Assembly (NCBI GenBank): GCA_029237695.1
Contig: CM055265.1
Span: forward strand, 107,558,773 to 107,622,772
DNA from: Conchocele bisecta
Taxonomy: Eukaryota > Mollusca > Bivalvia > Lucinida > Thyasiridae
Reading direction: 5' to 3'
DNA: 64,000 nt
In this document: positions 12,273 through 56,770 of the stretch, in pieces
Position numbering within the stretch: position 1 is the stretch's first letter
Layout: each line of letters opens with the position of its first letter
Program-made: the position numbers and the translations under genes
Notes under the pieces: generated by a model
Database searches by the model: none
Told to the model about the DNA's origin: nothing
The model's input: the letters and a program-made list of their open reading frames with translations, nothing else

Positions 12273-12659
12273 TAATTATTATATACCGCTCCATGTAAAT
12301 TAACAGTTTTTTAGACTTTATACGGTAATGCATGTGTATTTGCAGCCTATTTGCAGTCCGGAACTGCAGGTGCGCGTTATGAATATAGAACAGAACAAAC
12401 AGGCTCCAGTTTTGTTTGAGCAAATCCAGTTGCTCAAAATAGCGACTCCATATGCATAAGGAGGGTTATGAAAAACTTGACTATGAAAATTATCATAACA
12501 TTTCACCACATTCTAGGAACAGACATTAGGAACAGACATTCAGTATACGACATAGCATACTATCTCTGCGATCTTCTTTGCATTCAAGCGTTGTGAAATT
12601 GTTCATAAGAATTTCTCAGCAATCACCAGTGCAACCACCGCTGTGACTTCCATATTGAA

Positions 12660-13320
12660 ATCAGTATGAAAACTTTCATAACATTCCGTTCTGAGACAAA
12701 CAATTTTTCATAAAATGTACTATCGCTCTCGCATTTTCATAAACCGGACTATGAAAAATTGTCATAAAGCGTAATATACCTCTCATTATGAAAATTTTCA
12801 TAAAGCTTATTATCACTCTCACTATTAAAATGTTCATAAAATGTAATATACTTCTCACTATGAAAATTTTCATAAAGCGTAATATCACTCTCACTATTAA
12901 ATTTTTCATAAAATGTAATATACCTCTCGCTATGAAAATTTTCATAAAGCGTAATATCACTCTCACTATGAAAACTTTCATAAATGTAATATACCTCTAA
13001 CTATGAACATTTTCATAAACCGTTCTATCACTCTCACATATTGAAGTCGCTATGAAAATTACTGCTTTCAGACAAATTTTAGCAGCTATGACAATTTTCA
13101 TAAAACGTACCATCGCTCCTACATATTGTAGCCGCTATGAAAATTTTTGTTACGTTCCCGTTCTCAGATAAACATTAGTCGCTATGAAAATTTACATAAG
13201 ATTTCCGTTGTCTGACAATCATTGGTAGCTATGAAAATGTTCATAAGAGTCACTATGAAAGCAAAAAGCACATACAGTGTGCATGTAATGAGGTCAATAT
13301 GAAAAGGTTCATAATAGTAG
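12660..13320. repeat. Array of TATGAAAATTTTCATA units, left arm
   Basis: Short units of roughly 35 bp alternate the palindrome CTATGAAAATTTTCATAA with spacers such as GCGTAATATCACTCTCAC and ATGTAATATACCTCTC. Two half-units make a repeat of about 70 bp. Each unit is itself a palindrome, so the array has symmetry at two scales. Confidence 0.8.
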
Positions 13321-16079
13321 CATTTGCCACGATGAACTTGGTCATATAATGCAGTTAGGTTTACTAATTGTTCCTATTGACGGTTAATTGTCACAATGTT
13401 AATGTTCCAAAAATATGTCAAGTTAACGGACTCTCTGAATTATACAGTACTGCGGCACGTGTATTAAACATTATTGTCAAATATTAGTTAGTTGGTTAGT
13501 GATTGAAACAGCTATTGTAAGCAGAAATAGGAACATAAATGTGAATGTGACAGGCAACATTGGGTTTATGCGATTTATGTGTAGTTCCTGATCAAATATG
13601 ACACCTATTTTGGCTAATAACGATATACAATGTATGTTGCTTTAGAAACATGACGGGCCGTTTCATTCATTGAATAGCGAACGGTGTAGACCCTGATCAG
13701 ACTACACGGATGTGCATACTACGCTGGTGGCATACCCCATGAGCTCCGTTTTACCAGTCTCATCCACAAATACAGTGGTTATACGCAAACAATGAATAAG
13801 CACTAAACCTTGTATTTTCATGTGGGACATGCACAATAAAGAAGACTGTCTAAACATACATGCAAAACAGTTCAGTGAAATCGACATTAAACAGTCGGAC
13901 ATGGTGTTCTAATTCACATGTATGCACACGTGTCGTTACCAACTATCATTTGTCTTCCTTACGCATCAGGAATCAGAAAAAAACGTTCGTTCCATCAAAT
14001 AGATTAACGTATTCCTGCAGTGTCATATCCTCTGAAAATATAAACAAACGAGTTAAAAGGTGACCATACTATATACATGTATGACAAACATTACGCCACA
14101 AGTCATGATCGGAAACAGTGAAAACTAGAAAGAAAGTCCCAAATAACAAAGGAATTTCCCCTTAAATATAGAACCCATATGAAATTCATCACGCGCAAGT
14201 GACGTCCACCTTACAGGATGTATACATGTAGGTGCGATTATCATGCTACTTGTAGTTAGGGATGGCCCTAAGCAAAATTAAATAACGTATACATGCCTGT
14301 TTAAAATCCAGTGTTCCGCAGTCAAAACGGAAAGCGAGATATACCGCCGAAATTATACTGCCAGTCAGGGTCGGTTATCTAATTAATGGGTTCATACGTT
14401 CAGTCAGCCAATCAGATGTTCCATAATATTCGCGGTAAAAACGATCGGGGCGGGATTAAATGCTGCGCTGTTATTCATGTCTGGAGTCTGGATGCATGAC
14501 TAACCCTTACAATGCTGAATTCATCTTTGTCGTCTGCCTTTTAATTTTAGTTTTACACCGGTCTCGGTAGAGCCGGTGGCATATCGATATTATATTATCG
14601 TCTGCTTTTATATTTGTTAGACTTGTTTTAACAATGCACATGTTGGACAGCACATGATAATTGTCTACATTGGAGACAATTATCAGGTGCTTACAAAACA
14701 GGTTTTCATTACGTTCAATAAAATGTGGCCTGTGGGCACACGAATTCCACAGGGTGGCGGATTTATTTTCGAAACTCCGGCGAACTTGTGACGGACGTAC
14801 ACACGGACACACAGTCCAGACACGATATGCCACCGGCTCTACCGAGACCGGTGTAAAACTAAAATTAAAAGGCAGACGACAAAGAGGAATTCAGCATTGT
14901 AAGGGTTAGTCATGCATCCAGACATGAATAACCGCGCAGCATTTAATCCCGCCCCATCGTTTTTACCGCGAATATTATGGAACATCTGATTGGCTGACTG
15001 AACGTATGAACCCATTAATTAGATAACCAACCCTGACTGGCAGTATAATTTCGGCGGTATATCTCGCTTTCCGTGTTGACTGTGGAACACTGGATTTTAA
15101 ACAGGCATGTATACGTTATTTAATTTTGCTTAGGGCCAACCCTAACTACAAGTATTTTGATAATCGTACCTACATGTATACATCCTGTAAGGTGGACGTC
15201 ACTTGCGCGTGATGAATTTCATATGGGTTCTATATTTAAGGGGAAATTGTTTTTTATTTGGGACTTTCTTTCTAGTTTTCACTGTTTCCGATCATGTCTT
15301 GTGGCGTAATGTTTGTCATACATGTATATAGTATGGTCACCTTTTAACTCGTTTGTTTATATTTTCAGAGGATATGACACTGCAGGAATAAGTTAATCTA
15401 TTTGATGGAACGAACGTTTTTTCTGATTCCTGATGCGTAAGGAAGACAAATGATAGTTGGTAACGACACGTGTGCATACATGTGAATTAGAACACCATGT
15501 CCGACTGTTTGAGGTCGATTTCACTGAACTGTTTTTGCATGTATGTCTAGACAGTCTTCTTTATTGTGCATGTCCCACATGAAAATACAAGGTTTAGTGC
15601 TTATTCATTGTTTGCGTATAACCACTGTATTTGTGGATGAGACTGGAAAAACGGGGCTTATGGGGTATGTCACCAGCGTAGTATGCACATCCGTGTAGTC
15701 TGATCAGGGTCTACACCGTTCGCTATTCAATGAATGAAACGGCCCGTCATGTTTCTAAAGCAACATACATTGTATATCGTTATTAGCCAAAATAGGTGTC
15801 ATATTTGATCAGGAACTACACATAAATCGCATAAACCCAATGTTGCCTGTCACAATCACATTTATGTTCCTATTTCTGCTTACAATAGCTGTTTCAATCA
15901 CTAACCAACTAACTAATATTTTACAAGAATGTTTAATACACGTGCCGCAGTTATGGTATAATTCAGAGAGTCCGTTAACTTGACATATTTTTTGGAACAT
16001 TAACATTATGACAATTAACCGTCAATAGGAACAATAAGTAAACCTAACTGCATTTTATGACCAAGTTCATAGTGACAAA

Positions 16080-16760
16080 TGCTTGTTTCAGAACGATAAT
16101 ATTATGAACCTTTTCATATTGTCCTCATTACATGTATGTGCTTTTTGCTTTCATAGTGACTTTTATGAACATTTTCATAGCTACTAATGATTGTCAGAGA
16201 ACGGAAATCTTATGCAAATTTTCATAGCGACTAATGTTTGTCTGAGAACGGGAATGTTAGGAAAATTTTCATAGCGGCTACAATATGTGGGAGCGATGGT
16301 ACGTTGTATGAAAATTTTCATAGCTACTAAAATTTGTCTGAAAGCAGTAATTTTCATAGCGACTTCAATATGTGAGAGTGATAGAACGGTTTATGAAATT
16401 TTGCATAGTGAGAGGTATATTACATTTATGAAATTTTTAATAGTGAGAATGATATTACGCTTTATGAAAATTTTCATAGCGAGAGGTATATTACATTATA
16501 TGAACAATTTAATAGTGAGAGTGATATTACGCTTTATGAAAATTTTCATAGCGAGAGATATATTACATTTTATGAAAAATTTAATAGTGAGAGTGATATT
16601 AAGCCTTATGAAAATTTTCATAAGGAGAGGTATATTACGTACGCTTTATGACAATTTTCATAGTCCGGTTTATGAAAATGTTCATAGCGAGAGCGATAGT
16701 ACATTTCATGAAAAATTGTTTGTCTCAGAACGGAATGTTATGAAAGTTTTCATAGTGATT
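16080..16760. repeat. Array of TATGAAAATTTTCATA units, right arm
   Basis: This is the mirror of 12660-13320, with the same spacers in reverse complement (GAGAGGTATATTACATTTTA, GAGAGTGATATTACGC). The open frame running through it is a by-product of the repeat and is not taken as a gene. Confidence 0.8.
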
Positions 16761-17737
16761 TCAATATGTAAGTCACAGCAGTGGTTGCACTGGTGATTGC
16801 TGAGAAATTCTTATGAACAATTTCACAACGCTTGAAGGCAAAGGAGATCGCAGAGATAGTATGCTATGTCGTATACTGAATGTCTGTTCCTAATGTCTGT
16901 TCCTAGAATGTGGTGAAATATTATGATAATTTTCATAGTCAAGTGCAGTCTGAATTTTTCATAACCCTTCTTATGCATATGGGGTCGCTATTTTGAGCAA
17001 CTGTATTTGCTCAAACAAAACTGGAACCTGTTGAACTTCTTTATATGAATTAAATACGTGTATAATTGTGTCACTATTCCACCAGTTCTAAAAATTGCAA
17101 GTGCCCGCTATGCAGATATAATCATTTAGTAATATTTATTTTACTGATAGTGACTCGCGGTAGTTTCATATGCAAATGAGGCATGATGTTTTTTAATTAT
17201 TGTTACTAATTAAATGCGTCACATGAAACAATAATATTTTCGACAGATTATAAAGTGTGATCATTGCACATCAACAAATAAATACAGATAATAAATAGTA
17301 ATCTCCGTTACCATTTTAAGGAAATACGGTTATCGCCCCAGATATCAGTGTGGAACGTTACGTCTGATATAAAATGTATAATAATGCCAATCAATACGTG
17401 GGGTAATGGTGAATGAATGTTTGTTTTGCCAGAAAATGTCTCAAATGTATCTGATATAAAGAACATTTTGTGCCTACTGTGTGGGCATGTACCTTTAATA
17501 AATAAACCATTCATTCATATATAATGTGTGACATTTGTGGAATTTTACCAACACGATGTGTCCACCGATGCTGCATGCTGTACACTACACGTATTATCTC
17601 GTAACACAAGTACATGTGCTGTACGGCTAGTCATTCATTTGATGTTTTGTTCTACATCTCTTCGTGAAGATGTGTTCAACCGGTGATAAAACGGATATAG
17701 ATATGGTATGTAAAGCTAATACTTAATTATATATAGA

Positions 17738-25934: not shown

Positions 25935-28316
25935 CTATGGAGTACATTTGCACTTGCAAAGTGGTGAGCAGTCCAGATTTGCTTTGCCACATTTGCAGTT
26001 TGAGCAGTCCCCTTTGCAGGGGCATTTGATCAGCTCCCTGCACGATTTGGAAACCTCTGGAATGGTCAACCAAACTGGTAGCCACGACTCTGATACCTTG
26101 GTCCAGGCAAAATTATGTGGAGAAGGAACCACTAGCTGTGTTTGTGTGCTTGTCGTCCATATTCCTCTTGATACACTGCGCGTCGGCCATGCTGGAGTAG
26201 CGTATCGTTGGTGGGTGGAAGAGCTCAAAGGACTTGTTTTGTCATGCATGATAACAGTCAGTATCTCGAGCTTCTGGAAAGGGTCGTCGTGGAGATCGAG
26301 CCGCTGGAAGGGGTGACCTGCCAGAAACACACATGTCTCTGTGACGTCTTCATAGGCCTGCCAGGCCTGCCAAGCAGACTTCTTGCCCTTACCATTGAAG
26401 GCAGATGTTGTGTCACTACCTGAAAATGCGTGGAACACAGGCAATAGTAATGATTGTGGCTCCCCCAGGCTCGCACAGCTAAAGTTGATGTGGTAAAACC
26501 TATAATTCTTGCCCAAGCCAAAGGCCACCCAGATGTCGGCCGAGGGTTGAGTCGCAATCAGATCATGGAATGTGCCTGCAAGGATGACTACAACATCTGT
26601 ATCCACTGTACGCACTTGAATAATAGTTTCTTCATGCTCCAGTGCATGCAGTACATGAACCACGATCCTGGTGTCCGCCTCCTCATGATTGCAGTTTTGC
26701 ATGGGGATGCTGGTTCCAATAGATGTCACAGATTGCACTGATGTGACATATACAGCTTTGGCTGGTGGCCAGTTGAACTTTTCAACCTTGGAAGTCAAAA
26801 AGGAAAACAGCTCCTTCTTGTTGTCTGGGTCACGGAGGAAGTCCGCCCAATTGCCTGGAAGTTTTGTTTCGCCCGACACTTTCCTGCGCACGCCATTGCT
26901 TCTCTTTTCCCGGGTAGATTCCTTTAAACTGTCTGGTATGTATGTGTCCCACACTACATCCAACCTTGTGGCAGCCTGTAGCTGCTTCTCTAGGTATTGT
27001 ATGAAAACCCTGTATGTATACTCGTGGAAGGAGCTGATGCTGGTAGTGGGCAGGCTGTGGACGATCACAGCACCATCCAGGATCTTGCAGTCGTAAGTCG
27101 ATGGTGGCTCTGATTGCCTGGGCTGCTCAAGATATTGCAGCAAGTCAGACATCGTGTTTGGAAGATGAAGCTTGCCAAAGTCTGAGAGGGAAGGAGGGAA
27201 GGACTGTATCTTATGTGCAAATAACTCGGCCAAGTCACGGTTCTGCATGGATATGCATAGCTGGCCAAAGAGTGCCACATTGTTCTGAAGCACTTTGATC
27301 TTCTTCCCCTGCTAAGATGATGCCTTGTGTTGAGGTTTCCTAAAGAGTGCAAGAGAATTCCTCTTGATTGGGTCATGGATAGAGTGGCTGCGCACACCAA
27401 GCACATTCTTGACGAATTCCTGGTACTGGTTCTTGCCTATATCCTCCATGGTGCGCACTGTGGTTACCACTGATTTGTCTGTACAGGTGCGATGAGTTAC
27501 TAGATCAGGGAAATCATCCAATAATGGGTTTCCCATTCTTCTGATGGTTTCGTAGAGGCTGGTAGCCTGTCGCTGGAAGGTCTTCTGTGTCTAGAGACCC
27601 TGCTCGTGGTACTGGAAGTTCTTGGGGATTTCTGTGTCATCATTAGGAATGTATTCTTCCTCAAAATGATTCAGCAATCTGGCCATCTCTGGCCCCGAGA
27701 GCATCCACCATCGAAAGGCAACAGGGTTTTCTGTAGGCCCAACAGCACCGCCCGAACCTTTCACAATATTGTTCTCCTGCTCATGAGCCTGGTCAAATGG
27801 GATCGTAGAGAACTTGTTGGTGGTCTTGGAAAGGACCCAATGAGAACACTTTTCAAACTCATACTTGATAGTGTCGGGCAATGACTTCATATCCTTGATG
27901 TGGACAGGCACCCACCGTGAGTAATTCACATGATCCAAGGCAAACAACAGCGGTGTGAGTTCCTTCAAGACTTCCACATAGAGAGAAAAAATATTCTCTC
28001 TGTGAACCATGATGAAGATGAGAATTAGGGTTTCATATCTCATGATCAAGTCCCAGTACATGAAAGTAGAACTCCTCTTCAGCATGTCGTTTGTCCAAGC
28101 CATGACAGACTCGTTGGATCCCTCGCTCTGCACGAAAGCCTCCTTCTGGAGATTATGCAGGGTCAAGAGTGTGACTTGGTGGGCATGCCTGGTTCGAGTT
28201 AGGTGTGCCAGAAGATGCTACTGCTGCATCTGTGAGTGCCGTTGTCCAGCCGGAACCATCCAATACATCTCCCAGTGTATTCCAGAGGGTCATTTCCGTG
28301 TGTAGACCACCTAACA
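25935..28316 (-). pseudogene. Transposon protein: DDE-like C-terminal part, XPG/FEN1-like nuclease, Cys-rich C-terminus
   Basis: Reading leftward from 28316, LGGLHTEMTLWNTLGD and DGSGWTTAL appear first. After one frame change near 28215 a single frame runs from about 28200 to 25935, interrupted only by two TAG codons (27591-27593 and 27312-27314). In order it contains TRHAHQVTLLTLHNL; FALDHVNYSRWVPVHIKD; FDQAHEQENNIVKGSGG with a nearby TEN, possibly the last acidic residue of a DDE transposase; NHEEADTRIVVHVLHAL; VRTVDTDVVVILAG; and PVFHAFSGSDTTSAFNGKGK, which resembles the acidic and helical-clamp motifs of FEN1/XPG nucleases. It ends with at least 10 Cys in about 30 residues (CPCKGDCSNCKCGKANLDC), a likely zinc-binding cluster. 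The upstream catalytic region is missing. Such families are multi-copy in molluscs and cnidarians as far as I know. Confidence 0.6.
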
Positions 28317-29542: not shown

Positions 29543-30240
29543 CTCCATTATTCTAATTATTCGTTCCGTAGTGCTCACAAAGTTTCGTGACCGCCATTAT
29601 TTGACTGTCAGCTCATGCAGCCTTTCTGTTTGGCGGTCACTCATTAAATGCATATTTATCTTCATAATTTTACACTTACCTGATGTATTTTGACATGTAG
29701 AATCATCTGGACATCTGACCGTCACGATATCTTAGCTATCTACGCTGTATTTTTAGTCTAAAGCCTAAAAACGTAACTTTCAAATCCAAGATGGCGGAAA
29801 CTTGACAGTCAATGCTCTGATTTCAACCAATGAAATGGCTGACTGTCAGATTTCCTGGCCACCGATTGGCTGACTGTCAGATCCAGTGTCTATATAAGGA
29901 ATGACGCAACACAGATTCTTACGTCGGTCACAGAGAGCAGACCAACACTTAAATGCAGACTTTCACTGTCACTCAAAGTTCGTTCAGCCAGTGTTGTAGA
30001 TGTTTTCAGCCGCTAACATTTGGGCTACTACTAGTACTACAGTGTAATGCCATCATGACAAACAATCTTCATAGAAATAATAAAGAAACTGAAACTTGTA
30101 TCTTGTTTAGTCTACTCTGAACTGCCAACCAGTGCTTAGCTGCTAACCTAACAATATATAGTACAATACTAACATACTAACTACTCATACTAACTGCATT
30201 TGACAGCATCCGCCCTCAGCTCTAATTGGCGCCACTAGAA
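29543..30240 (+). promoter_or_regulatory. LTR-like or promoter-like block with CCAAT, TATA, poly(A) and primer-site-like sequence
   Basis: Two CCAAT-type boxes lie beside repeated GGCTGACTGTCAG (about 29830-29880). They are followed by CTATATAAGG at about 29890, then an AATAAAGAAACTG poly(A)-type signal at about 30078, and finally TGGCGCCACTAG at about 30228, which resembles a tRNA primer-binding site. The order promoter, poly(A) signal, primer site is that of a long terminal repeat. The 5' boundary and a partner LTR were not found, so a solo LTR plus leader is inferred. A cellular promoter is the alternative. Confidence 0.4.
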
Positions 30241-32410
30241 GTAAATGTCCTAATAATAAGTAAATGATAGCCAATTCGAACATCAGGTGAATACGCTTCA
30301 ATAATTGTCATAGGTAGAAATTGTCGTCAACTATATATCTGGCGGTGACTATCTTTTTAAGTTAGCACAATGCATTATCTTTAAAAATGGAGTGGTCTGT
30401 TGAAATACTTCCAGGACATGTTGTAGAACTCTAAATTCACACTGGTATGGAAACAGCAAGCAGCTGCGTGACTTATATGTATTCGTTGCAATATCGGATC
30501 AAATGAATGCGCTTAATTAACAGGTATTTTCATTTGTCCGATAAACTGATTGTCCGGATAACTGGTATGACCCCTGTACGGTTCTATTTGAAATGTAATC
30601 ATCTTTATGCGTTAAATACAAGTCGCAAGGATTTCAGAATGTTTTGGATTTGTATAAGTATGTATGCTCGGTGAGCATGTAGAAAGTATTGTCTGATAGA
30701 CTATACTACGAACTTTTCTGAATAAATGGATCTGTCCATGACATTTCCAACATTGGCGTGGTAAATGCTATGCCATGGAGTAAACGCATGATAAAGTTAT
30801 ATGTCGTGGAGCCAACGCAGCCGACACACACTTAGGCGTATGACAGCCACGTACAAAGATCAAACACTGCGGTTTTTGACAATATACGTGTTCAGAATCG
30901 CGAGATTTGTTCGATTTGGAATTATAAATGTACCAAATAAGAAATCGTAGGACATGCAAACTTACACGACGTCCGATTTCTCAGAGCCTGTAACATAATA
31001 CGTTAATATTGCCAACGTTTTATTCACGTATGTGTCATGTGGCTACAGTTTTCTATAAACAATCTTAAGTGTTTATTAATGGCATATAAATTTATTTGAA
31101 AGTAATATATCATTGTAATCCTAATATAATGTTGTTTATGGAATAATGAAACGTGTTTATGTAAGCAGAGACTTAATATTTTTTTCCCATGCCCAGGCTC
31201 AAATATTAGTAGTATCTATAAACATATAGGGATTTGAGAAATTATGATATTCAAACAGTTTGGCATGGGTCACAACTGGCTGACACGTTCAATGCTGTTG
31301 ACGTTGTAATAGACAAACACTCATTTATAGTGTTAACGTAATATCTAGGTGAATAAATAGTATGTGCTTATTTCGTTGTGAGTCGTACATGAGTTCTTAG
31401 AGTGTACATTGATGCACGTTGAAAAGTCTCTGCTTACATTTTCATGCTCTCCTTTAGGTATACTATTTATATTTCATATAATCTACAGGAACAACATTGA
31501 CATTGCAGCGAGGAGTATGTTGATCATTAAACGTAGCTGTCGTTCTGAAACTAGTAGCATGGCCGTGATTCACTAAACTACTATCACAGCAATATGATGT
31601 GTACACCGTGACCTTTAAATTACAATAATAAATTATACATTTGGATGTAAACAGGTGATAAATCATACTGATATTAATAGCATCGCAGATTAATCAAACA
31701 CACATGAATAACAACTTCACTTACTAGAACATAGTAAACAGTAAGCATGTACATATAAATGGTTTCGGAAATGCATGGCTTTATTCAAAATTGAAGCATA
31801 ATACACAGTGATTAATTGACCAGCGTTTCGCGCGTCAAATACACACACATCTTTGGCTGTGCCAAACCAACATTCAGATATATTTTCTTCCATACGAAAA
31901 CACACCATTTATTTCAGAAGAGACAATTTAACACACAAACTCAATATGTTAGACAAAACACAGATACATGGTGGAATACTAGATTTTATATAAGTATCAT
32001 CATTAAATATTGAAATGACAGCTGGTTTTGATAACGCTATCAAACTAATTCATTTTGCATAGTTCATCAATTTGTGATTGCCGTTAAGTACTTAAAATAT
32101 AATATCTTAGGACAAGCATGGAGTAAAGTTTTGACACTTGGCAGCCATCTTGGATTTATATATTGAATTTAGGCTATCACAATATGTGTCACTACCCGTC
32201 CAGATAATGGAACAAGGTGATGAAGTTATATACACTACCATGTATTGCAACGTAACTATAGTTTGTGCTAGCGGTGGGTTGGGATGGTGGGCTAACTTGT
32301 TATACTTTTGGCGGCCATCTTAGATTTTGGTAGCAGGTTTTGACCAAACTGCAAGTTTCATGCTCTATAAATTGCAACAATTGATTGTCATGTTCTCATA
32401 CCGTTTTACA
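30241..32410. other. No recognised gene
   Basis: AT-rich sequence. A 15-bp inverted pair (GTAAGCAGAGACTT near 31160 and AAGTCTCTGCTTAC near 31424) may mark a small foldback of about 290 bp. A GGCAGCCATCTTGGATTT motif occurs at 32140. Nothing else is supported. Confidence 0.35.
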
Positions 32411-32417
32411 ATGTGTA

Positions 32418-32734
32418 TGTCACGGTACGTAACTCACTATGGGGAGAATATGTGTATTCGTGCCCGGCTAGCTCAGTCGGTTAGAGCGATGGTACGGTAA
32501 ACCAGAGGTCCCGGGTTCGAGCCCCGGGCCGGTGCAGATTTTCTCACCCTGTGACATTTGGCGCCCAACGAGGGACCGTGACTGATATATACTACCCAAA
32601 ATGTACCAAATATATGGAATTCAGAGTCGAATTATTTATAGAATTCGGGGACGAATTCTAATTTGGCGGGGAAGTAAACCCGAGGTCCCGGGTTCGATCC
32701 CCGGGCCGGAGCACATTATTCTCACCCTGTGACA
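32418..32734 (+). mobile_element. Miniature LTR retrotransposon (TRIM-like) with a tRNA-like sequence in its LTR
   Basis: The 5' LTR (32418-32556, 139 bp) begins TGTCACGGTAC and ends CACCCTGTGACA, so it has matching TGTCAC/GTGACA ends. Two bases later comes TGGCGCCCAACGAGGGACC (32559-32577), a typical lysine-tRNA-type primer-binding site. About 100 bp of non-coding interior follow. A truncated 3' LTR (about 32670-32734) repeats the last 63 bp, including GGTCCCGGGTTCGA and CTCACCCTGTGACA. TGTA precedes the 5' LTR and follows the 3' LTR, a possible 4-bp target duplication. It carries no protein, so it would depend on another retrotransposon's enzymes. Confidence 0.65.
32462..32536 (+). tRNA. 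tRNA-like sequence inside the LTR (not a normal tRNA gene)
   Basis: It has a perfect A box (TAGCTCAGTCGG) and B box (GGTTCGAGCCC). There is a GCTC/GAGC D stem, a CCGGG/CCCGG T stem, and a weak anticodon arm (ATGGT ACGGTAA ACCAG) whose loop lacks the invariant T before the apparent GGT anticodon. Acceptor pairing is 5 of 7. I call it a tRNA-derived pol III promoter module. A second T-arm copy lies in the 3' LTR at 32679-32712. Confidence 0.55.
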
Positions 32735-33296
32735 TGTAAATGCAAATTTGCTTTGATGCTACAGGATTTTTCAAAATCACAGAAATGGTCTGGATGGGCA
32801 ACTATGATATTTGGCGACCATAGTTGATCTTTTTTAATACATTCCCAATTGCTACGTATTTATAAACATGTCTATAATGTATGTTATTCTTAGAACATAG
32901 TTCAACCATAAACGGACTTCTGTTTTGCCAATAGTTGATGTAATTCGTACATATTTAGTGTGGTGGAGGAATGTACGTGGGTTTTGGCCGCCATCTTGGA
33001 TTTTGGTTTGCATTGTTGTTACTTGAATGGTCTCAAACCTGCACTTACAGATTGCTATCATGCGGAAATAATATCTAGAGATACATACCTTTCAATTAAA
33101 TATAGTGGCAATTTGCTCCCCGCCCCCAAGTGGTAATGATAACCCCGTTTTCATGGGTCTGTCTCGCCCACTAATACTCCTGATCATGTAATGAAACAGA
33201 TTTCACCATTTCACCCCTTAATATATAACATAGTCTGTTCCGTTTTAATCATTAATCAAACGAAATGTAGTGTTGTAATCTCAAACATGACAAACA
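32735..33296. other. Short spacer with a GGCCGCCATCTTGG motif
   Basis: No gene was seen. One copy of the dispersed AAGATGGCGGCC motif (reverse strand) lies at about 32987. Confidence 0.35.
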
Positions 33297-33830
33297 CTGC
33301 AGATCCGGGTGAGACCACAGGCATTCGACGTGTTTCGGCTTTCATCGGTATAACTCTACATATATGAGCAAGGCTTCTGACTTTCGTCGCACACGACCTC
33401 GTAACATAACAAAATAACATGTTTAAAATTGTAATTTTCTATGCATTCTATGTATTTCTGCAGGATAACGATAAGTCTCAAATGATCATATGAACTTGCC
33501 ACTACAATATTGACGTTGGAGCCTGAAACACATTATTTAATTTGTTATGGTACGAGGCTGTGTCCGACCTAGCAAAATCAGCTGTCATTCGATATTCTTT
33601 GCATAATTACATTCTAACTATGCTATTTTTGCAAGATAACAATACTTCTCAAATGAAAATGTGCACTTTCTGCCAAAATATTCACATTAGCGTTAAAAAA
33701 AATCGCGCAATCTGTTATGATACGAGGTCGTGTCTAACCAAAGTTAGAAACCTTGTTCATATATATAGAGTTATATCGTTGAAAGTCGAAACACGCCGAA
33801 TGCCTGTGGATCTACAGTGTTTGGAAATGT
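33297..33830. mobile_element. Inverted-repeat element with internal direct repeats
   Basis: Outer arms of about 110 bp (33300-33415 and 33705-33825) share CAGGCATTCGACGTGTTTCG, ATAACTCTA and ACACGACCTCGTA. Inside, about 140 bp repeat directly (33430-33572 and 33600-33745; GATAACGATAAGTCTCAAATG, TTATGGTACGAGG). Confidence 0.6.
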
Positions 33831-34196
33831 TGACATTTTGGTTTGTATGTTTGAACAGGTTGTATTGGTTTAATCAATACTACTGTTGGTTTCCGATAAA
33901 TGGCAAGTGCACGTGACGTCACGGGATCAGCGGACTATGTCTATTATAGCTTTCTAGGGATGTAGCCGTTTGCAGCCATTTTAGCTGGCCGAATCGACGC
34001 CTTATCAAGAGCAATTTATAGCTTAAAAATGCATGCTCCCGATAGCTTATGAGATAATTTAAATTACCAACTGGTTGACTGGTGAAACAGGCGATTGAAA
34101 ACCACAATAAATGCCATATTTGTAAACGTAAAAGTTTTCGATAGTTTATTCATTTTGATTGCCCAGTCGTCCGCAAGCATACGCATTATTTTTTCG

Positions 34197-34275
34197 CACA
34201 GCTCAGATGGTAGAGCGCTCGGTAAATGCATTCTACATGCGTTCCCTTTGTGCGAGTTCGAGCCTCGGACAAGTT
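34197..34275 (+). tRNA. Degenerate tRNA-like sequence
   Basis: An A-box-like CAGCTCAGATGGTAGAGCG and a B-box-like GCGAGTTCGAGCCTCGG are spaced as in a tRNA-derived SINE head. The acceptor 5' half is missing and the anticodon arm is not convincing. Confidence 0.4.
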
Positions 34276-34481
34276 ATTATTTTTTTATTCATATAACAGA
34301 TTCAACGTTTTTCATAGAAACGACAATACGGGGGTGGGGGACTCTTGGGGACGTCAAATATACACATCCTCTGGGTTATTGGCCACCTAATTCCCGGCCC
34401 CTGAACAAGTTTGAATGTAAATACACCCCACACATTGAATATCCGCCTCCCCAGAGCGGGGAAAACATTGATTGCGCTGAT

Positions 34482-34577
34482 ACATTTTGTCCAGACAGAC
34501 ATATGGATATAACTAAGACGATTCAAATGACATTTTGTCCAGACAGACTTGTGGATATAACTAAGACGATTCAAATG
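34482..34577. repeat. 48-bp tandem duplication
   Basis: Two adjacent units contain ACATTTTGTCCAGACAGAC and GGATATAACTAAGACGATTC with two or three differences. Confidence 0.85.
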
Positions 34578-34939
34578 ACATTATGCAATATACGTCTTTA
34601 TCAGTTTTTGAACCAATACCAAAAATATGTTTCTGTAAGTTACATTAAATAATGTTAATAAAATAAACGTATTAACGACGGCAGATTTCTATATATATAT
34701 ATATGAAGTGAGGGACACAATTCAATAAAAACAGATAGCACAGTGATGATTTCGAACCCACAACCCTCAACGTTGATTAATTAAACAAAATAAAGAACTG
34801 TTACAACTACGCTATATGCATCATAGTGTATATTGTTATGTAGATTTGCATTTTTTTTGCTACATTTTTATAACCAATGTTTTTTTGTCATCTTTAGAGC
34901 ACGAAGAACAAAACTGGGGTTGGTTCCATTTTTTTCGAC

Positions 34940-37900
34940 AATTCTCTTGGAATTCAAAATGGCCGCCCTGAAATGCTATATTCATTATATATACACTTAT
35001 AATACAGGTAGAATATTGATTCCTTTTTTGGTGATACACATTTTTTGACCACACACAACAAAACCCGTGTTATTTTCATTTTGAACAGGGGCCATGGCGG
35101 CCATCTTAGATTTAAAAATGGCCGCCCTTAAGTATACAATATATTGTAATATTCATATCTACATTTTCAATGCAGATATAATGTTGTTACTTCAAATGAT
35201 AAAACTGGGGTAGGTTCCACTTTCTTCTGATAACTGGTATGGCGGACATTTTGTTTTCAAAATGGCCTCTATGTAAATAATATTTATTGTGTCTTCACTA
35301 CGTACTGTCTTTAGTAAAATTGTATTTATAGTTAGGTTGTTTTGACTGTTTTGCTACGTTCTTGGAACAAACGTTCTGTGTATCATCAGAGAAAACATGA
35401 GTTGTTCCTATCGTATTCTCATTTTCAAAAGGCTCCCATGAAAATCATATAATTCAGATATAAGCATGCACAAATCATTTGAACTGATTTTTACCCAGAC
35501 TATAATCTTTATTGAAAGTTAAATATATATGACTAAAGTCAATTTCAAGTCACTGTTTATGACACACATGTTATATTTCAAAATGGCCACTGTGCTTAAT
35601 GCAGGAATTTTCTTAATGATGGATACAGTGTTTTCAATCAGTTCCATCACCATCTGCATTAAAGTCTACATCTTGTTGGTGCTCCTGAAAGGCAGTGCTG
35701 GCACAATCACACTCGAAATGTGGTCAAAGGAGTTGTTTACATAAAATATGTACCCTATGCAAACTTGTACGTGGGAAAGTGTAGAAGCAATGTCGAAAAG
35801 GCAGTATTGATGTTATTAAATTGCTTTTTCGGCATTAAAACGCCATGTGCACATGTTCAGTATGTGTAGACGACATGTGTAAAATGTCAGATTGAATGCC
35901 AAAATACCGTTGGAGAGGTTGAATATACTCTATACCTAATACAGAATTGTATGCAGGAAACTATAGAAAAATGGCCACGTTGAAAAGGCAATATTTTTCC
36001 ATGGTCATTATCATTATTTACGAGTACCATATGATCTTAAGAGATCACAACTTCTGTGTCAATATAAAAGTGATGAGTGCCTTGATTGCCCAAATTACGT
36101 TTCATTTGTTGAAATTGTCATATAATGACTTGAGAAAGCCAGAGACATGTATACCTACATATAAAAACATACTAGTTACTGATACGCTAACCCACGAGCC
36201 AGTAACATATATATACTCTAATTTTATTAAGGGTATGAATGCACAGGTACATGTAGTATTCGCGAACTTACCTGTCAGTGATCACGAGTTGCAAGAAATT
36301 GCAAACTTATAGTAAGATGCACAATTGATTCTGCTAGAAAAATTAGTCTAATGGGATAACTCAATTTCAGAACGCAATGTCCGCAGAAAATAGTGGCGTT
36401 ATGGGAATACGGAGATAAGCTGAAAGGATCTAAACGATTGTGACTCCATTCGTGTCTCAGCATTCAGAAATATCGTAGACGAGCGCTAGATATTATGTTC
36501 GGGTAAAATTGTAGGAAGATTTTCAATTGAAGACTGAAATGCCAAAGATACATATACTGATATCACACTATGTACCAGACCACCCATGACAAACTGTTGC
36601 TAAAAACATTTCCACATGGAATGAAAACTGTTAACAACAACAGTCGCACAGCATGAAATCCAAAATGATCACTTGACAGCTGAAAGGGATTTACAGTAAG
36701 CATGGTATACCAAGTACACATGTGTTAGATGAAGTCTGCAAAAGGTATTGGCTGATTTTGCAAAAAAAAATATATTCCTTCATGTCACGTGCTCTATGTA
36801 GCCAATATCCAGCTGAGCGAAAAGTAATCATTGTGATATACAGTTTCTTAAAAACAAAGGATAAATGTACAGACCCATATTTGGGTATACTGGAATATCG
36901 AAACTCCCATGACCGACACGGAATGGTCACCTGCGCAGTTGTTGATGGGACAGCGGCTTCTATCCAGTTTACTGACCACTTGCGAGCAGGTATTGTCAAT
37001 AAATGATTCTATTTGTGACAAAATCAGATCCAGTCATCAACAGAGCAAGAAACGCTGTGATAAAAGCATAGTAGCTTTAAAATTAAAAGAAGTAAACATT
37101 GGCGACCAAGTTGGACTCCATAAAGACAGCAAATTGTTGAGACCAGTTACAGTCTACTTGCACAATGCCAGATCTTACATTGTACAGACTGCAGATGTTG
37201 TATCATATCCCATGACAGCAAGGGAGAATATGGGTATTACATTTGCAATGCAATATATATGTACAAGACATTAATACACACATTATTGGATACAATGGAT
37301 GATTTGCCATATTGTAATCTTCATGTGCTGTCATAAGATATAATTTGGAGAAACATAACTATAAGCCATAACAATACGTATTACATGTAAATACGTAATA
37401 CAACAATACGTAATACATGTAAGTCCTTGAAGTGGCAATGTATGTGGTACACTTATTTCCAGCGGCCATTTTGAAGATAATGGTGCCTGGTACTACAGTA
37501 CTAGTTAGCAATAATATCAACAGTTTGTGTTCATTGTATTATGAGCATAAGCGGAAGAAACATACAAAATATCACCCCTGCATTAAACATATATAATAAA
37601 TATTAGATTGTCAAGTTTACATGGCGGAATTTTAAAAATAAAATGGCAGTTATTTCAAAATATACTGAAATAATTATGCCAATATGTCTTATCCATAACA
37701 AATAATAATAAAAAACACCACATATAATGTGTTAAATATAAATTAATTTCAATGGCGGTCATTTTGAAATTCAAAATGGCGGCCATGCGGCTCTTAAGAA
37801 ATGGAACAAACTTCAGCATTGTTATGTGTTGTATATAGATATGTTTTTAAGCAAACACACACGTTCCAATCACAATATTATTTGAAAGAAGATAACAACA

Positions 37901-39942: not shown

Positions 39943-40026
39943 TATTTTTGATCAGTAGCTTCACTGGTCACAAATGCCATACGCCCATTTATCCAGTCAC
40001 AGCCACATATGCCCTGTATATTTCAG

Positions 40027-40184
40027 CACTGGTATTCGGCGGTATCACTATAGGCCTGGGGTTCCTGGCACAGTATTTCGGCAGCCTGATCCTCCAAATG
40101 GCCCTCAGAATAGTTCGCATGGTCGGCGGACTGCTGCTCGGCCTGTTCGTCTGTGCCATATTTCATCCTATAATAAACTCATGG
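40027..40184 (+). CDS. Exon of an SLC5-type sodium-coupled solute transporter
   Basis: The exon encodes LVFGGITIGLGFLAQYFGS followed by ILQMALRIVRMVGGLLLGLF, ending in NSW at a GTATGT donor (40185). This matches the region of SMVT/SMCT-like SLC5 transporters usually written ...LQxALSIFGMVGGPLLGLFxLGMFFPWxNSxG. These plasma-membrane proteins couple Na+ influx to uptake of vitamins, monocarboxylates or iodide. A TATATTTCAG acceptor precedes 40027; an alternative acceptor is GTCACAG at 40002. The frame is open, but changes at usually invariant positions (RIVRM for SIFGM, CAIFHP for LGMFFP) raise the possibility of a decaying exon. No neighbouring exon was recognised in the window. Confidence 0.55.
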
Positions 40185-40454
40185 GTATGTTACTTTTTTG
40201 TTTATTTCAAATCAATATACCGACAGATGTCACTCGGCGGAATGTCATAACTTGTTTGTTTCCAATTATATATAAATACATACAAGTTGTGTTGTACATG
40301 TGTATGTGGTCTGTAGATGAAAAGAAACCTTGGTTCACACAATGTAGCAAAATATTTCACAATACCTAAAAGAACGACATAACAGTATACACTATCAGAC
40401 ATGAACTGTATGTATTGGTCACAGGTAGATATTTCATTCATTCATTCGGCTTAT

Positions 40455-54546: not shown

Positions 54547-56770
54547 ATGGACTGGATTATTGGACTGGATTATTGGTCATGGAATATAACATGTTGTAGG
54601 GATTTTGAGGAGCAGGGTGGGGTGGGGGTGGGGGTCCTCAAAACATGTTTAGTTAGCAAAGTAAAATCTTCTCCACTTGAGACGATTCTCATGTGCTGTG
54701 AAATGTTCTCTTTTTTTTCAAGAATTATTTAAACAGAAGAAATGAACAGCAGACAACACAATTTTATTTACAAGTCATTTGTCAGAATTGCGTGGGAGCA
54801 GGGTACCCCTTGGGTGATTAAGAAAACTTGATTCAACATGTTGAGTGACCAAATATTTGGACCCTGGGAGTAAAGACCACATGTGAACAAAGGCCAGCTC
54901 AGGCTCTTCCAACTCGATTCTCGATAATTTTAACTCGATTCTCGATAATTTCAACTCGATTCTCGATAATTTTAACTCGATTCTCGATAAGTTCAACTCG
55001 ATTATCGATAATTTTAACTCGATTCTCGATAATTTCAACTCGATTCTCGATAAGTTCAACTCGATTCTCGATAATTTCAACTCGATTCTCGATAATTCCA
55101 ACTCGATTCTCGATAAATTCAACTGGATTCTCGATAATTTTAACTCGATTCTCGATAAGTTCAACTCGATTCTCGATAATTTCAACTCGATTCTCGATAA
55201 TTTTATCTCGATTCTCGATAATTTCAACTCGATTCTCGATAATTCCAACTCGATTCTCGATAAATTCAACACGATTCTCGATAATTTTAACTCGATTCTC
55301 GATAATTTCAACACGATTTTTGATAATTATTGGACTGGATTAGTGGTCATGGAATTTAACATGTTGTAGGGATTTTGAGGAGCAAGATGGGGGTGGGGGG
55401 GTCATTAAAACATGTTTAGTTAGCAAAGTAAAATCTTCTCCACTTGAGACGATTCTCATGTGCTGTGAAATGTTTTTTTCTTCTTCAAGAATTATTTAAA
55501 CAGAAGAATGAACAGCAGAAAACAACAATGTTTCATTTACAAGTCATTTGTCTGAATTGCGTGGGAGAAGGGTACTCCTCGGGTGATTAAGAAAACTTGA
55601 TTCAACATGTTGAGTGACCAAATATTTGGACCCTGGGAGTAAAGACCACCTGTGAACAAAGGCTCTTCCAACTCGATTATCGATAATTTCACAATTTCAT
55701 TTACAAGTCATTTGTCTGAATTGCGTGGAGCAGGGTACTCCTTGGGTGATTAAGAAAACTGATTCAACATGTTGAGTGACCAAATATTTGGACCCTGGAG
55801 TAAAGACCAACATGTGAACAAAGGCCAGCTCAGGCTCTTTCCAACTCGATTCTCGATAATTTTAACTCGATTCTCGATAATTTCAACTCGATTCTCGATA
55901 ATTTTAAACTCGATTCTCGATAATTCCAACTCGATTCTCGATAAATTCAACTCGATTTCTCGATAATTTTAACTCGATTCTCGATAATTTCAACATCGAT
56001 CTCGATAATTTTAACTCGATTCTCGATAATTTCAACTCGATTCTCGATAATTTTAACTCGATTCTCGATAATTTCAACTCGTTTTTATGATAATTATTGG
56101 ACTGGATTAGTGGTCATGGAATTTAACATGTTGTAGGGATTTTGAGGAGCAAGATGGGGGGGGGGGTCATTAAAACATGTTTAGTTAGCAAAGTAAAATC
56201 TTCTCCACTTGAGACGATTCTCATGTGCTGTGAAATGTTGTTTTTTTTTTCTTCAAGAATTATTTAAACAGAAGAAATGAACAGCAGACAACACAATTTC
56301 ATTTACAAGTCATTTGTCTGAATTGCGTGGGAGAAGGGTACTCCTCGGGTGATTAAGAAAACTTGATTCCACATGTTGAGTGACCAAATATTTGGACCCT
56401 GGGAGTAAAGACCACCGGTGAACAAAGGCTCTTCCAACTCGATTATCGATAATTTCAACTCGATTCTCGATAATTTCAACTCGATTCTCGATAATTTAAA
56501 CTCGATTCTCGATAATTTTAACTCGATTCTCGATAATTCCAACTCGATTCTCGATAATCTCAACTCGATTCTCGATAATTTCAACTCGATTCTCGATAAT
56601 CTCAACTCGATTCTCGATAATTTCAACTCGATTCTCGATAATCTCAACTCGATTCTCGATAATTCCAACTCGATTCTCGATAATTTCAACTCGATTCTCG
56701 GTAATTCCAACTCAATTCTCGATAATTACACTCGATTCTCGAAGATTCTAACTCGAAACTCGATGCTCGA
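54547..56770. repeat. Composite satellite: 21-bp CTCGATTCTCGATAATTTCAA arrays in about 770-bp units
   Basis: Three arrays of the 21-bp unit AACTCGATTCTCGATAATTTC (about 54905-55330, 55845-56095, 56430-56770) alternate with a conserved segment of about 500 bp (ACTGGATTAGTGGTCATGG, ATTTTGAGGAGCAAGATGG, CAAATATTTGGACCCTGG). A partial fourth unit lies near 55660-55740. Since 21 is a multiple of three, every frame stays open and the minus strand spells LSRIELK repeats. I treat this as a by-product. Confidence 0.9.

What the first reader, a model, noticed from the sequence alone, without database searches (positions are those of the whole stretch)
32418..32734. Miniature LTR retrotransposon whose LTR carries a tRNA-like pol III promoter
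Seen directly: matched TGTCAC/GTGACA LTR ends, an adjacent TGGCGCCCAACGAGGGACC primer site, a repeated 3' LTR end, TGTA on both sides, and a full A box and B box inside the LTR. Known: TRIMs are non-coding LTR elements, and Cassandra TRIMs carry a 5S rRNA-derived segment in their LTRs. Inference: this is a tRNA-based counterpart that could be transcribed by pol III and mobilised in trans.
Basis: partly seen in the sequence, partly recalled or inferred. Interest (0 to 1): 0.8.

Follow-up and report, generated by a model that had tools for sequence, protein, structure and literature searches.

The report
Decayed Helenus-type miniature LTR retrotransposon
This is a small, decayed copy of a parasitic jumping element whose end repeats contain a tRNA-derived start signal; it fits a kind of element (Helenus) already described in 2024, so it is real but mostly ordinary.

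Summary
At 32418-32734 there is a 139-nt 5' LTR (TGTCAC...GTGACA) holding a complete tRNA-like segment with A and B boxes, a tRNA-Lys-type primer site 2 nt downstream, a 117-nt interior ending in a short purine-rich tract, a 61-nt remnant of the 3' LTR, and TGTA on both sides. One correction: the 3' LTR is truncated. It keeps LTR positions 79-139 (57 of 62 columns identical) and lacks the LTR start and A box, so this copy is probably old and immobile. Bivalve Helenus include tRNA-Lys primer sites, and animal Helenus make 4-bp duplications, as here. Copy number is untested: the genome search did not answer in 8 tries, and five viral-contig pattern scans and one prokaryote scan gave no relative. 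Host and named family are unknown. Open point: the only TTTT within the element lies in the 5' LTR, upstream of the primer site, so a full-length pol III template would need read-through.

The parts
32414..32417 (+). left target-site duplication TGTA
   Evidence: identical to 32735-32738
32418..32556 (+). 5' LTR, 139 nt, TGTCAC...GTGACA
   Evidence: its positions 79-139 recur at 32674-32734
32462..32535 (+). tRNA-like segment (ARAGORN: tRNA-Thr, anticodon ggt), probably derived from tRNA-Lys
   Evidence: first 19 nt identical to a tRNA-Lys-CTT typed from recall
32469..32480 (+). A box TAGCTCAGTCGG
32514..32524 (+). B box GGTTCGAGCCC
32539..32542 (+). TTTT, the only run of four or more T on the + strand within the element; possible pol III terminator inside the 5' LTR
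32557..32673 (+). 117-nt interior, no ORF of 90 aa or more
   Evidence: sequence; none of the 86 listed ORFs of 90 aa or more overlaps 32418-32734 (the interior alone could hold at most 39 codons)
32559..32576 (+). primer-binding site, 16 of 18 complementary to the 3' end plus CCA of a tRNA-Lys-CTT typed from recall
   Evidence: next best place in the window, both strands, has 14 of 18. Other tRNA isotypes were not compared
32665..32673 (+). GGCGGGGAA, probable polypurine tract
   Evidence: assignment inferred, one pyrimidine, no relatives to confirm it
32674..32734 (+). truncated 3' LTR = LTR positions 79-139; keeps a B box (32691-32701), lacks LTR start and A box
   Evidence: 57 of 62 alignment columns identical (4 substitutions, 1 indel)
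32735..32738 (+). right target-site duplication TGTA

Best explanation
It is an old, 3'-truncated copy of a Helenus-type TRIM (TRIMp3), a non-coding LTR retrotransposon whose LTR carries a tRNA-derived type-2 pol III promoter. Shown here: LTR ends, tRNA-like segment with both boxes, tRNA-Lys-type primer site, purine-rich tract, truncated second LTR, 4-bp flanking repeat. Inferred: intact relatives were transcribed by pol III from about LTR position 45, primed by tRNA-Lys, reverse-transcribed and integrated by the enzymes of an autonomous Gypsy-type element acting in trans. This copy lost LTR positions 1-78 from its 3' LTR after or during insertion; since new U3 sequence is copied from the 3' LTR, its RNA could not rebuild complete LTRs, so it should be a dead end.
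For: Structure. tRNA-like promoter; shuffles. Primer site 16 of 18 to tRNA-Lys (recalled sequence), next best in the window 14 of 18. [quoted passage not shown] ARAGORN's Thr call here rests on the anticodon only, so this is a weaker match. Promoter rather than gene: the 19 nt of 5' acceptor strand plus A box and a 13-nt T-loop/B-box block agree exactly with the recalled tRNA-Lys, whereas the anticodon loop, part of the T stem and the 3' acceptor strand differ; the minimum-energy fold is not a cloverleaf (z -0.77, 39 of 200 shuffles fold at least as well).
Against: One copy only; no second copy in the window, and none found in five pattern scans of viral contigs, a collection where an animal element is hardly expected. 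The 3' LTR is incomplete. The only TTTT of the element is upstream of the primer site, which is awkward for a full-length pol III transcript. ARAGORN and Rfam both fit a cloverleaf with few flaws, and I folded no true tRNA as a control, so the fold is weak evidence against a tRNA. No autonomous partner and no transcription data. The tRNA-Lys used for comparison was typed from recall.
Confidence: 0.9

Rival explanations
1. A tRNA-derived SINE (SINE2) with chance LTR-like ends, moved by a LINE.
For: A tRNA-like head of 74 nt with A and B boxes is the usual SINE head; short, without long ORF.
Against: The tRNA-like part is internal to a repeat whose 3' part recurs downstream with the same end GTGACA; a tRNA-Lys-type primer site sits 2 nt after the first repeat; the flanking repeat is 4 bp, and no simple-repeat or A-rich tail is seen at the right border.
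Confidence: 0.04
2. A SINE inserted into the LTR of an ordinary TRIM in this one copy, so that the tRNA-like part is not a property of the family.
For: Kojima proposes SINE insertion into an LTR as the origin of the class.
Against: The remnant of the 3' LTR carries the same tRNA 3' half at the same place, so the insertion should predate at least one round of reverse transcription.
Confidence: 0.03
3. A genuine or recently lost tRNA gene flanked by chance repeats.
For: ARAGORN and Rfam both call it a tRNA.
Against: Anticodon ggt on a body that resembles recalled tRNA-Lys looks like an isotype disagreement (no isotype model was run); an extra base in the acceptor stem in the Rfam alignment; LTR, primer site and duplicated 3' half are unexplained by a gene.
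Confidence: 0.02

Closest known systems
Helenus (TRIMp3), animal and above all bivalve families, Kojima 2024, PMC10886601
   Same: Short element with a tRNA-like sequence holding A and B boxes in the LTR; primer site and purine tract; 4-bp duplications in animals; tRNA-Lys among the primers of bivalve families.
   Different: This copy has a truncated 3' LTR.
Cassandra (TRIM with 5S rRNA sequence in the LTR), plants; passages of PMC7215508
   Same: Miniature non-coding LTR element with a pol III promoter from a small RNA gene in its LTR.
   Different: 5S-derived promoter (type 1, recalled), plant hosts, primer site TGGTATCAGAGC (Met type is recalled).
PbTRIM, harvester ant; passages of PMC3532108
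   Same: Animal TRIM with 4-bp duplications.
   Different: Leu-type primer site; the six passages found by my terms describe no tRNA-like sequence in its LTR.
tRNA-derived SINEs (SINE2)
   Same: tRNA-derived pol III promoter.
   Different: No LTRs and no primer site; moved by non-LTR retrotransposons (as described).

Membership tests
Helenus (Kojima 2024) | tRNA-derived sequence inside the LTR | tested here: met
Helenus (Kojima 2024) | Box A with TRGCY and YGG, box B with GGTTC | tested here: met
   TAGCT...CGG and GGTTC; feature as stated, where it holds for most families
Helenus (Kojima 2024) | Primer-binding site just after the 5' LTR | tested here: met
   16 of 18 to a recalled tRNA-Lys-CTT, 2 nt after the LTR
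Helenus (Kojima 2024) | Polypurine tract before the 3' LTR | tested here: inconclusive
   GGCGGGGAA ends at 32673, directly before the truncated LTR; one pyrimidine, and the true LTR border is lost
Helenus (Kojima 2024) | Two LTRs | tested here: inconclusive
   5' LTR 139 nt; 3' LTR reduced to 61 nt
Helenus (Kojima 2024) | 4-bp target-site duplication (animals) | tested here: met
   TGTA / TGTA; short, so weak on its own; that the host is an animal is itself inferred
Helenus (Kojima 2024) | Short (screened under 1000 bp) and non-coding | tested here: met
   317 nt; none of the 86 ORFs of 90 aa or more overlaps it
Helenus (Kojima 2024) | Multicopy family in the host genome | not tested
   The genome search did not answer in 8 tries
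Helenus (Kojima 2024) | Match to a published consensus | not testable with these tools
SINE2 | tRNA head with LINE-related tail, no LTRs | tested here: not met
   LTR end, primer site and repeated LTR 3' part present; no comparison with LINE tails was made
Cassandra | 5S rRNA sequence in the LTR | tested here: not met
   Rfam scan of 30000-35000 at E up to 1 gives one match, tRNA

The most novel reading that the evidence does not exclude
Promoter and primer may have the same source. The tRNA-like segment looks tRNA-Lys-derived and the primer site is tRNA-Lys-type (against a recalled tRNA), so the promoter could have been captured by template switching onto the primer tRNA packaged with the element, and not by a SINE insertion as proposed in print. 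In addition, the TTTT in the 5' LTR would make pol III release a short tRNA-like RNA most of the time and the full template only by read-through. Against it: in print, Helenus LTRs show no complementarity to their own primer sites, and within groups aligned with one tRNA the primers vary (fish: tRNA-Val-CAC against His, Leu or Lys primers).
Probability: 0.07. Interest if true: 0.6.

Novelty: new member of a known kind. Interest (0 to 1): 0.27.

Why it matters
It is a sighting of the Helenus anatomy read from raw sequence by eye, which supports that such elements can be found by anatomy. It also shows a practical trap: the tRNA-like LTR is called as a tRNA-Thr gene by ARAGORN. The place of the TTTT raises a testable question for this kind of element: how pol III makes a template that passes a terminator in the first LTR. 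That this copy is new, in the sense of absent from Repbase, was not tested.

Tried and rejected
Genome copies: the genome search 'own' was tried eight times with the same request and never answered.

Relatives elsewhere: five pattern scans of viral contigs. LTR end plus primer site: 0 loci; B-box block: 0; recalled tRNA-Lys 5' part: 0; A box, B box and primer site with gaps: 0; the 16-nt LTR end: 7 loci. BLASTN of the element against these 7 (E up to 1) gave alignments of 16-26 nt at 91-100% identity around the LTR end, and in 2 of 7 a 13-nt match in or at the edge of the interior; none covers the tRNA-like promoter. I read them as chance; best E was 1.5e-04 in L005, but the loci had been picked for the 16-mer. 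One scan of prokaryote genomes with a B-box block gave 3 Saprospiraceae loci, matching the tRNA-like part (78% over 69 nt) and its 3' repeat (26 nt) only; read as bacterial tRNA genes without further test.

Empty site: the element lies among stretches that share a GGCGGCCATCTTGG-like motif. I joined the flanks and aligned them with five neighbouring stretches; apart from the shared motif they do not align usefully, so this gives no empty-site evidence for or against.

Host: a 458-aa ORF at 25935-27311 has 910 homologues at E 0.001, of which I saw the best 120; those named with an organism are from corals, echinoderms and arthropods. This mobile-element-like spread does not name the host. An ORF piece at 39960-40250 had no hit at E 0.001. 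Pfam gave nothing at E 0.001 for 10 ORFs, and at E 5 only sub-threshold matches for 2 of 8 ORFs. A bivalve host is suggested only by resemblance to the published bivalve families.

Sea-urchin SURF1, which I recalled as a pol III-transcribed retroposon, was a search term; it appeared once in one listed review (PMC3747384), which I did not open. It remains an unfollowed lead for an older precedent.

Rejected readings: SINE, SINE insertion in one copy, plain tRNA gene (see rivals).

Full report
What is there. The sequence at 32418-32734 has, in order, a 139-nt LTR beginning TGTCAC and ending GTGACA (32418-32556), two bases, a primer-binding site (32559-32576), the rest of a 117-nt interior ending in GGCGGGGAA (32665-32673), and a 61-nt stretch (32674-32734) that repeats LTR positions 79-139 and ends in the same GTGACA. 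TGTA stands on both sides. The two LTR parts agree in 57 of 62 columns, with 4 substitutions and 1 indel. If the LTRs were identical at insertion, this copy is old.

Chance. ARAGORN finds one tRNA-like gene in the 64-kb window (500 bases are N), inside the LTR, and none in 1000 dinucleotide shuffles of the element. Rfam tRNA: 44.8 bits, gathering score 29. The internal repeat scores 95, against at most 25 in 1000 shuffles. The B-box pattern GGTTCGANNCC occurs twice in the window, both in this element; the A-box pattern TRGCNNANNNGG occurs four times on the two strands, one of them here. The primer site matches a recalled tRNA-Lys-CTT 3' end in 16 of 18 positions; the next best place on either strand of the window has 14. 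Other isotypes were not compared.

The tRNA-like part. ARAGORN names it tRNA-Thr with anticodon ggt. Against a tRNA-Lys-CTT typed from recall, the first 19 nt (5' acceptor strand and A box) are identical and a 13-nt T-loop/B-box block occurs in both, while the anticodon loop, part of the T stem and the 3' acceptor strand differ. The Rfam alignment has an extra base in the acceptor stem. The minimum-energy fold is not a cloverleaf; z -0.77, 39 of 200 shuffles fold at least as well. I folded no true tRNA as a control, and both ARAGORN and Rfam can fit a cloverleaf. On balance this fits a sequence kept as a promoter and not as a tRNA, an inference from one copy.

Mechanism. By the established LTR-retrotransposon cycle, the RNA would start near LTR position 45, be primed by tRNA-Lys at the primer site, and be copied and integrated by enzymes supplied by another element. 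For this copy the cycle should fail: new U3 sequence comes from the 3' LTR, and here that LTR lacks positions 1-78, including its TG end and the A box. A further difficulty may concern the family. The only run of four or more T on the + strand within the element is at 32539-32542, in the 5' LTR and upstream of the primer site; the corresponding place of the 3' LTR reads TTATT. If TTTT stops pol III, a full-length template needs read-through, or a pol II transcript. With one copy I cannot tell which state is ancestral.

Literature. A search on tRNA-like, LTR, sea urchin, SURF1 and retroposon (at least three of five) listed 20 of 46 papers, among them Kojima 2024 (PMC10886601; also listed). I read its abstract and outline, parts 1 to 4 of 6 of the text, the figures-and-tables section and the conclusions; the reference list was not read and supplements were not available. 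[quoted passage not shown] Animal families make 4-bp duplications and are thought to depend on Gypsy elements; bivalve families use tRNA-Lys, His, Ile, Pro, Glu or Ser primers, and seven can encode a tRNA-Thr; lengths are 311-1263 bp. The paper states that a functional pol III promoter in Helenus is not experimentally validated. A search for Helenus with retrotransposon found that paper and a 2026 meeting report citing it (passages).

What could not be tested. The genome search did not answer in eight tries, so copy number, consensus, intact 3' LTRs and the partner element are open. Five pattern scans of viral contigs and one of prokaryote genomes gave no relative. The host was not identified; the resemblance to bivalve Helenus is suggestive only.

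Bold reading. Promoter and primer site both point to tRNA-Lys, so the promoter might have been captured from the packaged primer tRNA. Print speaks partly against it: no complementarity between tRNA-like part and primer site was found across Helenus, and primers vary within groups whose tRNA-like parts were aligned with one tRNA. I give it 0.07.

Verdict. A real, decayed copy that fits a class known since 2024. The remaining interest lies in the terminator question and in the possible common tRNA-Lys source of promoter and primer, both of which can be tested on existing family sets.

Noticed in passing
34199-34290: A second, more degenerate tRNA-like stretch (AGCTCAGATGGTAGAGCGCT ... GCGAGTTCGAGCCTCGG) followed by a T run, about 1.5 kb downstream; probably a SINE or tRNA relic, not called by ARAGORN.
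   Followed up: partly
12514-16905: Tandem arrays at 12748-13248 and 16163-16664 (36/72-nt and 47-nt units) look like mirror images, with TAGGAACAGACAT and AATGTCTGTTCCT repeats outside them, as in a large inverted-repeat element (judged by eye).
   Followed up: no
25935-27311, - strand: A 458-aa ORF with 910 homologues at E 0.001 (best 120 seen; those named with an organism are from corals, echinoderms and arthropods) and no Pfam match; looks like a widespread mobile-element gene.
   Followed up: partly
36677-37274: ORFs that look by eye like the end of a Gypsy integrase (SPAQLLMGQRL...); no Pfam match for 36852-37274 even at E 5. Possible relic of an LTR element, not linked to this one.
   Followed up: partly
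28728, 28893, 32138, 32308, 32984 and others: A motif like TTGGCGGCCATCTTGGATTTTGG occurs 15 times on the two strands with up to 6 of 23 mismatches, in places 165-170 bp apart; the element lies between two of them.
   Followed up: partly
54910-56764: Three arrays of a 21-nt unit CAACTCGATTCTCGATAATTT.
   Followed up: no
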